In this document: in pieces, positions 48,730 to 54,116 of the stretch
How positions within the stretch are numbered: the stretch's first letter is position 1
How the letters are laid out: the number at the start of each line of letters is the position of its first letter
Origin: a virus
Virus record (IMG/VR): IMGVR_UViG_3300035704_000010
Location: 1 to 57,401 of that record
DNA length: 57,401 nt
Strand: one strand, 5' to 3'
Notes under the pieces: generated by a model
Told to the model about the DNA's origin: nothing
Databases searched by the model: none
What the model saw: the letters and a program-made list of their open reading frames with translations, nothing else
Made by a program: the position numbers and the translations under genes

Positions 48730-48908
48730 TTGACGCTCTGCCCATCCAAATGATTGAACGCACTCTTTAATGACTCACGGACAATGCGCTCAAGATGGGG
48801 CTCTAAGGACTCGCAGCGAGTGACGCGAACGCTGATCGTGACGGGGACTTTGCGCTCGATGCGATTGGCGAGCGCGCGCAACCACCGCGCGATGGAGGTT
48901 TTGATCAT
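48726..48908 (-). CDS. Small basic early protein, 60 aa
   Basis: MIKTSIARWLRALANRIERK (amphipathic helix), a beta segment KVPVTISVRVTRC, then another helix. ATG at 48908 overlaps the upstream gene's stop by four bases. Function unknown. Confidence 0.58.
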   Translation of the reverse strand: MIKTSIARWLRALANRIERKVPVTISVRVTRCESLEPHLERIVRESLKSAFNHLDGQSVK

Positions 48909-49525
48909 TCCGAAACCTCGAACGCGACAATATCGAACCGGCCGTAGGTTGGCCTGAAATCGCAGAGACCCACGAGGCGGCCGGCGCTCTGAATCAGCGA
49001 GCGCAGGAGTGCACCGTCGATATATTCCGGAGTCGTAACAGTTAAATCAAACGCGATACGCCAACCAGCGCGCATCGCGGGCCGCTCTCGCGTAATCCCC
49101 GCTCGCTGCACCGTGACTCGGCGGCGATCGATGAAGTCCCACTCGTCTGTACCTGGGAGAAACGGCGCGACGTCGGCCGAAGGGACGATCCCCGCTTTTG
49201 CAAGGTCTCGTGCGCATTTTCTAGGCGAGCGCGGGTCTTGAACGTACTTCGCCGCCTCAGTTATCGCCGAATGAAAGTTTACGGTCGGAATGCCGAGGCG
49301 GCGGTCCGTCTCGCTTACGCGATAGACGTAACTTTCGATATCGTCGGATTTCTTGGCCTTGGAATTCTTTGCGGCTTTCGCTTTTTCGGCTACGCTATCG
49401 ACGTTCCACGAATGGAACAGCAGCGGAGCCGTGCCTTCGATGACGATGCGCGCCGTGTAGGGCTTTAGGAATTCGATCTGATCTATTGCGCCGTTCGAGG
49501 CGCCATTCAACGCGGCAGTTTTCAT
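48905..49525 (-). CDS. Conserved early phage protein, 206 aa
   Basis: The start at ATG 49525 follows a GGCGAGGG site made by the pentamer array. Recognised as a widespread uncharacterised phage protein: TARIVIEGTAPLLFHSWN, KAAKNSKAKKSDDIESYVYR, WDFIDRRRVTVQRAGITRER and LVGLCDFRPTYGRFDIVAFE. Its conservation suggests a core early function, perhaps DNA-related, but none is established to my knowledge. Confidence 0.75.
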   Translation of the reverse strand: MKTAALNGASNGAIDQIEFLKPYTARIVIEGTAPLLFHSWNVDSVAEKAKAAKNSKAKKSDDIESYVYRVSETDRRLGIPTVNFHSAITEAAKYVQDPRSPRKCARDLAKAGIVPSADVAPFLPGTDEWDFIDRRRVTVQRAGITRERPAMRAGWRIAFDLTVTTPEYIDGALLRSLIQSAGRLVGLCDFRPTYGRFDIVAFEVSE

Positions 49526-49698
49526 GCGTTGAACCCTCGCCGTGCCATGCCCCGCCCCGCCTGGCCTGGGCTTGCCACGCCATACCCCGCCTCGGCAGGC
49601 CGCGCATAAAATACTTTTCCATGCCATGCCTCGCCGCGCCGAGCCTGACCTCGCCCAGCCTTAGCTCGCCACGCCGCGGCACAATTGATGCTCGTCAT
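49522..49698 (-). CDS. Low-complexity 58-aa frame encoded by a GGCNN pentamer array
   Basis: ATG 49698 overlaps the upstream stop (ATGA) and the TGA at 49522-49524 overlaps the next gene's ATG. Between them the - strand is built almost wholly of pentamers GGCNN (GGCGA, GGCAT, GGCGG, GGTAT, GGCCA), interrupted by AAAAGTATTTTAT near the middle. The peptide is Ala/Arg/Gly-rich (AWRAKAGRGQARRGEAWHG). The frame may serve as a translational bridge, the DNA array as a binding site, or both. Confidence 0.6.
   Translation of the reverse strand: MTSINCAAAWRAKAGRGQARRGEAWHGKVFYARPAEAGYGVASPGQAGRGMARRGFNA
49535..49680 (-). repeat. Degenerate GGCNN pentamer array
   Basis: About two dozen pentamers with invariant or nearly invariant GGC on the - strand. 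A period of five is not a multiple of three, so codon structure does not explain it. The central A/T-rich gap (around 49600-49615) divides the array into two parts. Confidence 0.75.
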
Positions 49699-50102
49699 GA
49701 TCCGCACTCTCGCATCGCCAACTCGCAGTCGAAGATGCCGGCGATGCGGCGCTCCTCTGGAATCGCGCAATTGCGGAGGCGATCGGCGCGCTCGCGCAAG
49801 TGGGCCACGACGTCAGCGAGGTGCTTGTTGCAGGCCCACAGCACGCGATTGTCCGCGTCGGTAAGCGTCCGCATCGCGCGCATCCGGGAGATCGTCATGG
49901 CTTGAAGGGAGCCGGCGCGCTGAATCTCGAGCAGGCCATCGGACATCGCCTTGGCGTCGTCGCTCTCGGCCACGAGGGCGTCAAACGCGGCCTCGAATCC
50001 GAGAATCTTTAGGTCGGTGGGCCGGTGCGACGGGTTCGGAAGATGGCGAACGCCTGAGCGCTTCGGTCGCGCAGTCGCGCGTGGTGTTAGGGTGGCGGAC
50101 AT
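49695..50102 (-). CDS. Early protein, 135 aa
   Basis: Basic, disordered N-terminus (MSATLTPRATARPKRSGVRH), then helices (FDALVAESDDAKAMSDGLLE; RVLWACNKHLADVVAHLRER) and a Cys-containing end. Second gene of the leftward operon, following the Cro-like gene. Unknown function. Confidence 0.62.
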   Translation of the reverse strand: MSATLTPRATARPKRSGVRHLPNPSHRPTDLKILGFEAAFDALVAESDDAKAMSDGLLEIQRAGSLQAMTISRMRAMRTLTDADNRVLWACNKHLADVVAHLRERADRLRNCAIPEERRIAGIFDCELAMRECGS

Positions 50103-50106
50103 GCGT

Positions 50107-50310
50107 TTAAGCGACCGCTTTGCCGTCGACGAGATCGGCGAATCCCGGCAGTTCTTGCCGGAGAGTCTGATAGTCAGACGCGCCCATCTCCGCTGCGCCT
50201 TTGAGCCATGCCCGAGCGCTGGCTTCAGACTTACCGACGGTGGCCGCGATCTTCGTGGGCGACCATCCTGCGCGCTCGGCAGCTATGGCAAGGGCTTCGT
50301 CAATCTCCAT
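50107..50310 (-). CDS. Cro-like HTH protein, 67 aa
   Basis: MEIDEALAIAAERAGWSPTK-IAATVGKSEASARAWLKGAA is a helix-turn-helix of the Cro/YdaS-like kind. First gene of the leftward operon and divergent from the CI-like repressor, which is the classical place of Cro. A -10 TACTAT ends six bases before its ATG, so the mRNA is probably leaderless. It may switch off the repressor and commit to lytic growth. Confidence 0.8.
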   Translation of the reverse strand: MEIDEALAIAAERAGWSPTKIAATVGKSEASARAWLKGAAEMGASDYQTLRQELPGFADLVDGKAVA

Positions 50311-50381
50311 GCCGGTATAGTAGCATACTGTCGCGCCATCCGCAATACCATACTGTGAGAGATTCTGCTTACCATGCTGCT
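50311..50381. promoter_or_regulatory. Divergent immunity promoters and operators
   Basis: Leftward promoter: TTGCGG (50345-50340), 17-base spacer, TACTAT (50322-50317), initiation expected at the A of the Cro-like ATG. CATACTGT occurs as a direct repeat at 50324-50331 and 50349-50356, and GTATAGTAGCATAC (50315-50328) is an imperfect palindrome over the -10. These are candidate operators for the repressor and Cro-like protein. The rightward promoter is less clear; TACTGT at 50351 is a possible -10. Confidence 0.7.
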
Positions 50382-50897
50382 ATGGGCCCAGACACCGATG
50401 ACAGCACATTCGCCGGTCGATTGAGACGCAAGAGGCTCGAACACAACCTTACCCCGGGTCAGCTTGCGACCGCCGTTGGCGTCACGGAAGGCGCCATCCG
50501 CCAAATGGAGTCAGGGCAAACCAAAAGCGCGAGCTTCCCCGTTGGCGTCGCGCTGGCTTTGATGCTTAATTGCAGCTCGCATTGGCTCGCGACCGGGCGT
50601 CCAAAGCCGTGGGCCGCATCGCTCCCGCGTGACCCAAATATCACCCGTCTCCTAAGAAGCGGATCGGTTGGCGAGGCTATGCCGCTGGTGGCTTACGAGG
50701 GCGGAGGGGAACCTGCTTGGCCGACGAGATCCGAGTTTCAAAGTCTTCGAAACGCCGTTCTGGCTCTAGGTCACAAGCTTGGTATTGCGGCTGAGCTTGA
50801 GGGTCTACTGCTTCAAGAAATTCGGGCGACCGAAGCCACGCCGCCAGGGAAAGCCACGCGGTCTCCGCGCGAGTCCGGGAATCGAAAAGCTCGATGA
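50382..50897 (+). CDS. CI-like XRE-family repressor, 171 aa
   Basis: Starts MGPDTDDSTFAGRLRRKRLE; the XRE HTH spans about residues 10-65 (LTPGQLATAVGVTEGAIRQM-ESGQTK) with a C-terminal extension of helical type. There is no clear S24 peptidase domain or Ala-Gly cleavage site, so induction may not be RecA-dependent. It begins the rightward lysogeny unit and faces the Cro-like gene. Confidence 0.83.
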   Translation: MGPDTDDSTFAGRLRRKRLEHNLTPGQLATAVGVTEGAIRQMESGQTKSASFPVGVALALMLNCSSHWLATGRPKPWAASLPRDPNITRLLRSGSVGEAMPLVAYEGGGEPAWPTRSEFQSLRNAVLALGHKLGIAAELEGLLLQEIRATEATPPGKATRSPRESGNRKAR

Positions 50898-52266: not shown

Positions 52267-52611
52267 GTGCCCGACGACGAGAAGCGCCGCGTCCTGCTTT
52301 CCGCTGCGTACTCGCCGCGGGGGATGGCCGAATATCTGGCGTACCGCGACGATCTCGACGAGCGCGTACGCAAGGGTTGGCTAAACGAAACGGAAGCGCA
52401 CATACTCAGCTCGATTCGAATGCAGGGAATCATCCTCGAAGGTGGCGGCGACCAGGCGATTCGGCGCCCCAAGTGCGAGAAGTGCGGCGAGTTGGCGGCG
52501 ATCATTGGCCGCGCCGCTCAAACGTTCCGCTGCCCGTGCTCGCCGGATCTCGAGCAATCGATCACCGATAGGGTGCGAGCGGCAAAGGACGAAGCCTCCC
52601 GGCCATCGTGA
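52267..52611 (+). CDS. Zinc-ribbon protein upstream of the integrase, 114 aa
   Basis: A GTG directly follows the TAG of the upstream gene. Helical N-terminal half (AYSPRGMAEYLAYRDDLDER) and a zinc site PKCEKCGELAAI with FRCPCSPDLEQS. It overlaps the integrase ATG/GTG by four bases. Its genetic linkage suggests a partner of the integrase, possibly a recombination directionality factor. The CxCSPxxE phrase is shared with the protein at 23253. Confidence 0.62.
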   Translation: MPDDEKRRVLLSAAYSPRGMAEYLAYRDDLDERVRKGWLNETEAHILSSIRMQGIILEGGGDQAIRRPKCEKCGELAAIIGRAAQTFRCPCSPDLEQSITDRVRAAKDEASRPS

Positions 52612-54116
52612 ACGGAACCGCCTGGGGATACTACGCCGTCAGCTCGAGCCCGCAGGAAGCGACCTTGGCCGATCAGGAGGCGTGGGCTAAGGACGTCGCG
52701 CGCGCGCGCGGCTGGGAGATTACGCGCTCTTTCAGCGGCACGGCGTCGGGCCGGCTGGGCGTTCGAACGATCCTCGAGCAGCTGATCGCCGAACTGACGG
52801 CTATCCCAAAAACGCAACGCCCCGATCGCATCCTGCTGATCCGCCTCGATCGCACCGGCCGCGTCGCGCTCGAGACGATCGCCGCGCTGGCCCGAATCAA
52901 GAAGCTGGGGGTCATTCTGCACACGCGGACCGACGGCGACGTGAAACTCGAGACGGCGCTCGATACGCTGCGCCCGATCTTCGAGCTGGTATCGGCCGAG
53001 ATCGAGAATTCCGGCCGCAGCGACAAGATGCGCGCGGTGCACGCGCGGTGGCGGGAAGCCGGCAAACACCTCGGGCCGCCACCCTACGGCACCGAAAAGG
53101 ACGCCGAGCGTCGGCTGATCGCCAAAGAGCCGCAGGCGAGCTTCGTGCGCCGCGCGTTCGAAATGCGCGCCACCGGTGCCGGGTTCAAGCGGATCGCACG
53201 CGACGTCGGCCGGTTCGCGCCGCCGCAGGGCACGTACGCCGGCCGGCCGCACGCGTCGGCCTGGCACCCGAATACCGTCGACAAGCTGCTATCATGCCGC
53301 AGCTATCGCGGCCTGGTCGTCGACGCGGATCTATGGGACCTCGTGCAGACGGTCCACAATCCGGACTTCCGGACGCTGCGCGCGAGCCGTGTCTATCCGT
53401 GGCCGCTCAGCGGCGTCCTGCACTGCTGGTGCGGGTGGACAATGGGCGGTGTCGCGTCGGGCAAGGAAGGGCGGCGCGTCCGATACTACAGCTGCCGGCA
53501 TCCGCGATATCACGGCGACGACGCCCGGCCCAGCATCCGCGCCGATCGTGCCGAGGGTTGGTTCGTCGACGGCGTGCGCCGGCTGGCCGGCGACCCCCAG
53601 GTTTTGCGCGACTATCGTGCGAGCGCGGCGCGCGCGACCATGGGCGTTCAACGTGAAACGCTCGCCGCGGCGCGCGCCGAGCTGGCCGACGTCGATCAAA
53701 AGCGCCAGGCCGCCTGGAACCTGCAATCGGACGGCCGGATCGCCGCCGCCGAGCTGGCGCTTCGACTCGACGAACTGCAGCGCCGGCGGAGCGAACTTCT
53801 CGCGCGCATCGTCGACGCCGAGCGCGAAGTGGCCGTGGCCGCCGCACACGACGTGATCGCGGACGACGCCGAGACCCTGTTCGCTGCGGCCGCGGATCTT
53901 TGGGCGACGTCAACGTGGGAGGAGCAGAAAGAATTGAGCCGGCTGGTCGCGCTGGCCGCGGGCGGCATCTCGATGGCACCTGACGGCGAATTGCGCTTTG
54001 GCGCCGACGATCCGCAAGGGCTGCCGTTAGGCGAGACTTCTTCGACAAGGCGGGTGGTCTATCGGCCGCTGGTACTTGGGGCGGGCGGCGTGATCGAAAG
54101 CAGCCTGCGGCCTTAA
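52608..54116 (+). CDS. int: Large serine integrase, 502 aa
   Basis: Resolvase domain: WGYYAVSSSPQEATLADQE with catalytic Ser at 12-14, RILLIRLDRTGRVALETI (DR motif) and the long alphaE helix VSAEIENSGRSDKMRAVHAR. The recombinase domain contains PPYGTEKDAERRLIAKEPQA and FEMRATGAGFKRIARDVG. A zinc-ribbon domain follows (LHCWCGWTMGG, YYSCRHPRY) and then a coiled-coil. It integrates attP into the host attB without supercoiling or host factors. The attP site is expected close by. Confidence 0.92.
   Translation: MNGTAWGYYAVSSSPQEATLADQEAWAKDVARARGWEITRSFSGTASGRLGVRTILEQLIAELTAIPKTQRPDRILLIRLDRTGRVALETIAALARIKKLGVILHTRTDGDVKLETALDTLRPIFELVSAEIENSGRSDKMRAVHARWREAGKHLGPPPYGTEKDAERRLIAKEPQASFVRRAFEMRATGAGFKRIARDVGRFAPPQGTYAGRPHASAWHPNTVDKLLSCRSYRGLVVDADLWDLVQTVHNPDFRTLRASRVYPWPLSGVLHCWCGWTMGGVASGKEGRRVRYYSCRHPRYHGDDARPSIRADRAEGWFVDGVRRLAGDPQVLRDYRASAARATMGVQRETLAAARAELADVDQKRQAAWNLQSDGRIAAAELALRLDELQRRRSELLARIVDAEREVAVAAAHDVIADDAETLFAAAADLWATSTWEEQKELSRLVALAAGGISMAPDGELRFGADDPQGLPLGETSSTRRVVYRPLVLGAGGVIESSLRP

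What the first reader, a model, noticed from the sequence alone, without database searches (positions are those of the whole stretch)
49522..49698. GGCNN pentamer array inside a short frame coupled to both neighbours
About 150 bases on the - strand consist of tandem pentamers beginning GGC, with one A/T-rich interruption. Five is not a codon multiple, yet a 58-codon frame stays open across it and joins its neighbours by ATGA at both ends. Such an array could keep ribosomes moving between two operon genes, offer repeated Shine-Dalgarno-like GGCGAGG contacts, or bind a protein. I recall look-alike GC-rich arrays in other phages but cannot search.
Basis: partly seen in the sequence, partly recalled or inferred. 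Interest (0 to 1): 0.75.

Follow-up and report, generated by a model that had tools for sequence, protein, structure and literature searches.

The report
Phage VIPR guide-RNA array beside Vipr
The odd five-base repeat is the guide-RNA part of a VIPR system, a recently described CRISPR-like, RNA-guided weapon that phages use against rival phages, and the gene right after it encodes the RNA-binding Vipr protein; it is a new member of a system first reported in 2026.

Summary
The - strand holds about 25 pentamers (GGYNN: 19 GGC, 2 GGT, 4 GCY) in two blocks around a short A/T-rich hairpin, and shuffles never come near it. The 58-codon frame is incidental: a GGCNN array can carry a stop in only one way (NN=TA).

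Follow-up leads elsewhere. Of 120 IMG/VR loci picked only for (GGCNN)9, 86 encode the same ~200-aa protein family (PHROG 4652) as the window's downstream gene. Conversely, of 84 loci found by that protein, 83 carry GGY/NN arrays nearby, 139 arrays sense and 2 antisense. The family profile hits the solved "SUSP1 Vipr protein" (36pp, E=1e-39), and the window protein folds like Cas7/Csm3 RAMPs. A 2026 preprint (PMC13142463) describes this pairing as VIPR: Vipr binds guide RNAs (vrRNAs) of GGY/NN repeats, and the NN pairs specify a gapped DNA target, to repress competing phages.

So the window is a prophage whose early operon carries two putative vrRNAs (11-12 and 13 repeats) just upstream of vipr. 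Expression and targets are not shown; target scans found none. This clade has no conserved accessory gene, and the second vrRNA runs into the vipr start codon. New member of a known kind.

The parts
49621..49680 (-). Putative vrRNA A, repeat tract: 11-12 pentamers; NN = (GC) GT GA AA TG GA CA TC GC GA AT AT
   Evidence: GGY-pentamer chain; reads 5'->3' from 49680 to 49621
49604..49624 (-). Hairpin after array A, the 'A/T-rich interruption'; candidate 3' tail/boundary between two vrRNAs (inferred)
   Evidence: 8-pair stem GCAUGGAA-AAGUA-UUUUAUGC (37-nt fold); some arrays of the clade also end ..GGCATGG + A/T-rich or hairpin sequence (L121, L155, L001). z-score only -1.3, so not strong alone
49537..49601 (-). 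Putative vrRNA B, repeat tract: 13 pentamers; NN = CT GA GG AT GT AA CA CA GG GG AT AC GA
   Evidence: GGY-pentamer chain
49506..49533 (-). Stem-loop TTCAACGC-(ATGAAAACTGCC)-GCGTTGAA with the vipr start codon in its loop; candidate tail of vrRNA B and/or control of vipr translation (inferred)
   Evidence: sequence read directly
48905..49525 (-). vipr: RAMP-like Vipr protein, 206 aa, PHROG 4652
   Evidence: phrog_4652 E=2.8e-18; 36pp SUSP1 Vipr: phmmer E=8e-6, family profile E=1.1e-39; Foldseek to Csm3/Cas7 E down to 2.7e-8
49522..49698 (-).
   Evidence: present, but no reading-frame selection in 341 related arrays and a linking ORF in only 19 of 111 gaps
49695..50102 (-). 135-aa gene upstream in the same operon; no family match, not conserved beside other vipr genes
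50107..50310 (-). Small HTH protein (Cro-like position), first gene of the leftward early operon
   Evidence: PF13384 E=2.8e-5, just under cut-off
50382..50897 (+). Divergent HTH repressor (CI-like position) of the prophage
   Evidence: HTH_3 E=9e-8, phrog_2328 transcriptional repressor E=1.6e-12 on the longer ORF 50208-50897; gene call
52608..54116 (+). Large serine integrase/recombinase: the element is a temperate phage
   Evidence: Resolvase PF00239 E=2.2e-12, phrog_95 integrase E=1.8e-44

Best explanation
This is a VIPR (Viral Interference Programmable Repeat) locus of a temperate phage. The pentamer array is transcribed in the leftward early operon (HTH - 135-aa gene - array - vipr) and supplies one or, more likely, two guide RNAs (vrRNAs). 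Vipr, a small RAMP protein related to Cas7/Csm3, coats the RNA, probably with one subunit per pentamer, holding the invariant GGY and exposing each NN pair. The 11-13 NN pairs together read a DNA target with one skipped base between pairs (NNxNNxNN...), probably in coding DNA of a competing phage or prophage, and the bound complex blocks its transcription. Shown here: array anatomy, the array-Vipr pairing in many divergent phages, strand bias, hypervariable NN, predicted RAMP fold, and homology to the solved Vipr. Taken from PMC13142463 (tested there on other VIPRs): RNA expression, Vipr-vrRNA complex, 1-nt skip rule, repression of targets. Inferred for this locus: the split into two vrRNAs, the tails, subunit spacing, expression and the rival-phage target.
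For: (1) Array-first: 86 of 120 IMG/VR loci chosen only for (GGCNN)9 encode a Vipr homologue by profile. In the BLAST clustering the next most common family reaches only 25 loci. Many misses are contig-edge arrays or simple repeats (L061, L066, L106, L107). (2) Protein-first: 83 of 84 loci found by a Vipr relative have a GGY/NN array near vipr; 139 arrays sense, 2 antisense. 75 of 84 have at least 8 of 12 GGY pentamers; the other two-fold control motifs reach this in 0-3 loci, except the overlapping YGG in 24. (3) NN is near-uniform (16 dinucleotides at 4-9% over 5202 units). (4) Profile match to 36pp_D 'SUSP1 Vipr protein' E=1.1e-39; window protein alone E=8e-6. (5) AF2 model (pLDDT 91) matches type VII Cas7-like subunits and Csm3, E down to 2.7e-8. 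(6) Positive control: the same detector finds one array upstream and three downstream in phage SUSP1, as reported in PMC13142463. (7) NN usage follows codon positions 1-2 (r=0.54), not 2-3 (0.02) or 3-1 (-0.29), in line with a skip base at the wobble position.
Against: No natural target was found: guides A and B were searched in viral contigs, guide B in genome contigs (a cyanobacterial tandem repeat), and both in 46 related records with up to 3 mismatches. The single 18-base viral hit fails in the other four units. The window's tails resemble neither SUSP1's nor each other. Four of 25 units are GCY, so decay cannot be excluded. The class itself rests on one preprint.
Confidence: 0.9

Rival explanations
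1. The array is the operator of an autoregulatory circuit: Vipr binds its own mRNA leader along the pentamers (as TRAP binds (G/U)AGNN repeats) and controls translation of vipr, whose start codon lies in the adjoining hairpin; DNA targeting is secondary or absent here.
For: Array B ends about 11 nt before the vipr ATG, which sits in the loop of an 8-pair stem. 5-nt period with free NN, as in TRAP sites (own knowledge). Arrays in the clade often abut gene starts.
Against: Arrays are as often downstream of vipr (63 loci) as upstream (58 loci). NN would not need to be hypervariable with codon 1-2 usage. Related systems target DNA (PMC13142463). Not exclusive with the best explanation.
Confidence: 0.12
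2. One reading: a translated or ribosome-guiding spacer that couples two operon genes.
For: A 58-codon frame joins both neighbours by ATGA.
Against: Frames are open by construction; no frame selection in 341 arrays; linking ORFs in 19 of 111 gaps; the upstream partner gene is not conserved.
Confidence: 0.03
3. A decayed VIPR array: vipr is intact but these guides no longer function.
For: 4 of 25 units are GCY, no recognisable shared tail, no target found.
Against: GCC/GCT units are common in the clade (386 of 5202 units). Two blocks have in-range repeat numbers (9-16 in PMC13142463). vipr is intact with the conserved G-loop residues.
Confidence: 0.12
4. Chance low-complexity DNA or a simple microsatellite.
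For: A few loci caught by the same pattern are simple repeats (L066, L106).
Against: Shuffle tests, hypervariable NN, strand bias and linkage to one gene family.
Confidence: 0.01

Closest known systems
VIPR systems (Vipr + vrRNA), PMC13142463 / doi 10.64898/2026.04.26.720920; Escherichia phage SUSP1, PDB 36pp
   Same: Vipr-family RAMP next to sense-strand GGY/NN pentamer arrays in flanking intergenic DNA of a phage; hypervariable NN; 11-13 repeats per block (paper: 9-16).
   Different: Deep separate clade from SUSP1 (11 rows, 99/97 support); only 33% identity over 70 residues to SUSP1 Vipr. No conserved accessory (vap) gene beside vipr in the clade. Mostly GGC with some GCY units. Second array runs into the vipr start. 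No SUSP1-like tail. Target unknown.
Class 1 CRISPR-Cas RAMPs (Cas7/Csm3; type III-A, type VII)
   Same: Fold of the subunit, G-rich loop, presumed oligomer on guide RNA.
   Different: No CRISPR-like array in the window and no cas gene among the nine proteins scanned around it; guide carries invariant triplets every 5 nt; Foldseek TM about 0.5-0.6 and 8-17% identity.
TRAP (trp RNA-binding attenuation protein) sites, (G/U)AGNN repeats
   Same: 5-nt period with two free spacer bases (own knowledge).
   Different: Partner protein is a RAMP, not TRAP; triplet is GGY; arrays lie on both sides of the gene.

Membership tests
VIPR | Vipr protein: small RAMP with RRM core and G-rich loop | tested here: met
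   PHROG 4652; profile to 36pp E=1.1e-39; window alone E=8e-6; Csm3/Cas7 fold; G182, G186, R191, G195 conserved in at least 90% of 78 sequences
VIPR | vrRNA repeat tracts of 9-16 GGY/NN (YNNGG) units with hypervariable NN near vipr, same strand | tested here: met
   Blocks of 11-12 and 13 units just upstream of vipr; hypervariability shown across the clade; 4 of 25 units are GCY rather than GGY
VIPR | Structured, conserved 3' tail after the repeats | tested here: inconclusive
   A hairpin follows block A and a stem-loop follows block B, but z-scores are weak and no tail is shared with close relatives; SUSP1 tails are not present
VIPR | Accessory gene (vap) next to vipr (typical, not universal) | tested here: not met
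   No neighbouring gene family in more than 11 of 85 clade loci, and that one lies ~1.3 kb upstream. The paper calls two genes 'typical' and lists six vaps for seven types, so absence does not exclude membership
VIPR | vrRNA expressed and bound by Vipr | not testable with these tools
   Needs small-RNA sequencing and pull-down
VIPR | Guide matches DNA of a competing element by the 1-nt skip rule | tested here: inconclusive
   No credible target found; NN composition follows codon positions 1-2 in the wider set
VIPR | Carried by a phage or prophage (most, not all, known systems) | tested here: met
   IMG/VR record with serine integrase and divergent repressors
CRISPR-Cas class 1 | CRISPR repeat-spacer array and cas genes | tested here: inconclusive
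   Tandem-repeat scan of the window shows no CRISPR-like array; nine proteins around the array gave no cas match, but the whole window was not scanned for cas genes
Translated coupling frame between operon genes | Frame conserved and under selection in relatives | tested here: not met

The most novel reading that the evidence does not exclude
The window's clade (at least 316 relatives found in IMG/VR; 83 of 84 loci checked have arrays) is a stripped-down VIPR type that works with vipr and its guides alone, with guides embedded in the early-operon mRNA rather than in separate tailed RNAs. In this window the last guide overlaps the vipr start, so that guide processing and Vipr translation compete or feed back on each other.
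Probability: 0.25. Interest if true: 0.6.

Novelty: new member of a known kind. Interest (0 to 1): 0.5.

Why it matters
It ties a raw-sequence oddity to an RNA-guided system of phages first described in 2026 and proposed as ancestral to CRISPR. It also gives an independent computational check, in two directions and with controls, of the central anatomical claim of that preprint (Vipr and GGY/NN arrays travel together, in sense), over protein sequences as different as ~20% identity. A clade without a conserved accessory gene would be a good minimal system for testing what Vipr can do alone. It also explains a class of bogus 'hypothetical proteins' rich in G-x-A-R/W repeats that gene callers produce over such arrays.

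Tried and rejected
Translation/coupling frame: rejected by permutation and by comparison with related gaps. TRAP-like RNA-binding site: considered first because of the (G/U)AGNN period; kept only as a minor rival after the Vipr match. Simple repeat or chance: rejected. BLASTN of an array and TBLASTN of its pentapeptide translation against annotated phages gave nothing, as expected when only GGY is shared. Target searches for both guides gave one chance hit (L129; units 1-4 fail) and one cyanobacterial tandem repeat (L130). Perfect skip-1 matches among held loci came only from simple-repeat arrays. Rfam has no match. Promoter and terminator scans were uninformative.

Full report
Observation. 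The - strand of the window between 49680 and 49537 is a chain of pentamers, 25 in all: 19 GGCNN, 2 GGTNN and 4 GCYNN, in two blocks (A, 49680-49621; B, 49601-49537) separated by an A/T-rich hairpin. It is the only such array in the window. It scores 73.6 bits against a maximum of 20.2 in shuffles of the whole window, and 66.6 against a maximum of 25.4 in 1000 local shuffles. It lies between a 135-aa gene (49695-50102) and a 206-aa gene (48905-49525) in the leftward early operon of a temperate phage, with a divergent HTH repressor and a large serine integrase on the other strand.

The frame means nothing. In (GGCNN)n all three frames run through the same five codon types (GGC, NNG, GCN, NGG, CNN), and the only possible stop is TAG where NN=TA. 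All three frames therefore encode the same kind of peptide (G-x-A-R/W-x), and the antisense strand is open too. In 341 arrays from related loci the number of open frames is that of permuted NN. Only 19 of 111 co-directional gaps with an array have an ORF that links the neighbours.

Array-first search. The arrays have about 10 to over 100 units, NN is highly variable, and many loci hold several arrays. With a home-made gene caller, 115 of 165 arrays lie in sense between two co-directional genes and 8 are antisense to both. Clustering the proteins of all 124 loci (the 120 plus four relatives of the window protein) puts one family, that of the window's downstream gene, in 85 loci counting the window; the next family reaches 25. 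By profile, 86 of the 120 array-first loci have it, and many of the rest have the array at a contig end or are simple repeats. The family is very diverse (20-30% identity to the window protein for most).

Protein-first search. With a profile of the window's own clade, a second scan found 316 relatives, of which 80 were kept. Of 84 loci in this set (these plus relatives found earlier by protein), 83 have a GGY/NN array within 900 nt of the gene (upstream only 20, downstream only 25, both 38), with 139 sense and 2 antisense arrays. With a fixed statistic (12 consecutive pentamers), GGC and GGT lead all 64 triplets. GGY reaches at least 8 of 12 in 75 of 84 loci, the other control motifs in 0-3, except the overlapping YGG in 24. 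Over 5202 units the sixteen NN dinucleotides each make up 4-9%. The strict strand bias points to a role as RNA.

The protein. PHROG 4652, 'unknown function' (77 of 78 members), with no convincing Pfam or NCBIfam family. Its profile finds one solved protein, 36pp 'SUSP1 Vipr protein', at E=1.1e-39, then Csm5 at E=0.045; the window protein alone finds 36pp at E=8e-6. The AlphaFold2 model (pLDDT 91.2) matches Cas7-like subunits of type VII and III-A CRISPR complexes. The C-terminal GRLVGLCDFRPTYGRF is the glycine-rich loop region.

What is known. PMC13142463 (read) describes VIPR: a Vipr RAMP plus vrRNAs of 9-16 GGY/NN repeats and a structured tail. The NN pairs read dsDNA with one skipped base per pair, mostly at the codon wobble position, and natural targets are competing phages, prophages and satellites. 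As a positive control, the detector used here finds one array upstream and three downstream in phage SUSP1, with their repeated tails, as the paper reports.

Reading of this locus. Block A gives NN = GT GA AA TG GA CA TC GC GA AT AT (with a possible GC before it). Block B gives CT GA GG AT GT AA CA CA GG GG AT AC GA. Read as NNx codons these are V-[DE]-[KN]-[CW]-[DE]-[HQ]-S-A-[DE]-[IM]-[IM] and L-[DE]-G-[IM]-V-[KN]-[HQ]-[HQ]-G-G-[IM]-T-[DE]. In the wider set, NN frequencies track codon positions 1-2 and no other codon phase. No credible target was found, and no self-target stands out in the window (best skip-1 match for A 16 of 22). The host is unknown, so failure to find a target is weak evidence.

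What differs. A tree puts the window in a well supported clade (99/97) far from SUSP1. Beside vipr in this clade no gene family is conserved: the best is in 11 of 85 loci and 1.3 kb away. The array is thus the only constant companion. Block B ends about 11 nt before the vipr start codon, which lies in the loop of a stem-loop. This suggests, but does not show, a link between guide processing and Vipr synthesis. The tails of the window are not those of SUSP1 and are only weakly supported by folding.

Verdict. The coupling interpretation fails, and the protein-binding idea and the 'look-alikes in other phages' were right leads. This is a new member of a known kind (VIPR), possibly of a minimal type without an accessory gene.

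Noticed in passing
L128:5650-5965 (OR003939.1, Phage DSL-LC04): The Vipr gene is annotated 'helix-turn-helix transcriptional regulator'; its leader holds GGY arrays, one of them inside the loop of a long stem (GTTTCTTAGTGGGGC..GCCCCACTAAGAAGC), followed by a terminator-like hairpin with a T run.
   Followed up: partly
L001:604-1213: Five tandem vrRNA-like arrays separated by near-identical ~45-nt spacers (GGGCCTTATTGCGAGGAATAGGGCGGCTAAAAACCGCCTTATGACGTGCAATC): a clean example of conserved tails within the window's clade.
   Followed up: partly
array-first loci L002-L119 (25 loci): A second family (~160 aa, motif LHxxFEWDDxxAAxxYR) often follows vipr directly, and a third (~160 aa, motif GDLVTY) fills the same slot in others: candidate vap accessory proteins outside the window's clade.
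   Followed up: partly
L027, L031, L102, L144, L151: Very long GGY arrays (100 to over 300 units) beside vipr, far beyond 16 repeats; presumably many guides in tandem or overlapping.
   Followed up: no
window clade loci: Units with GCC/GCT instead of GGY make up about 7% of clade units and 4 of 25 in the window; the middle G seems replaceable by C in this clade.
   Followed up: partly
window:46418-47197 (-): ORF whose sequence looks like an HNH homing-type endonuclease (DHINGVKHDNRRSNLRIAN), in the same operon direction.
   Followed up: no
Escherichia, Salmonella and Shigella phages (129 records): SUSP1-type Vipr is encoded in 129 deposited phage records, most at 95% identity or more; the records listed call it 'hypothetical protein'.
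   Followed up: no
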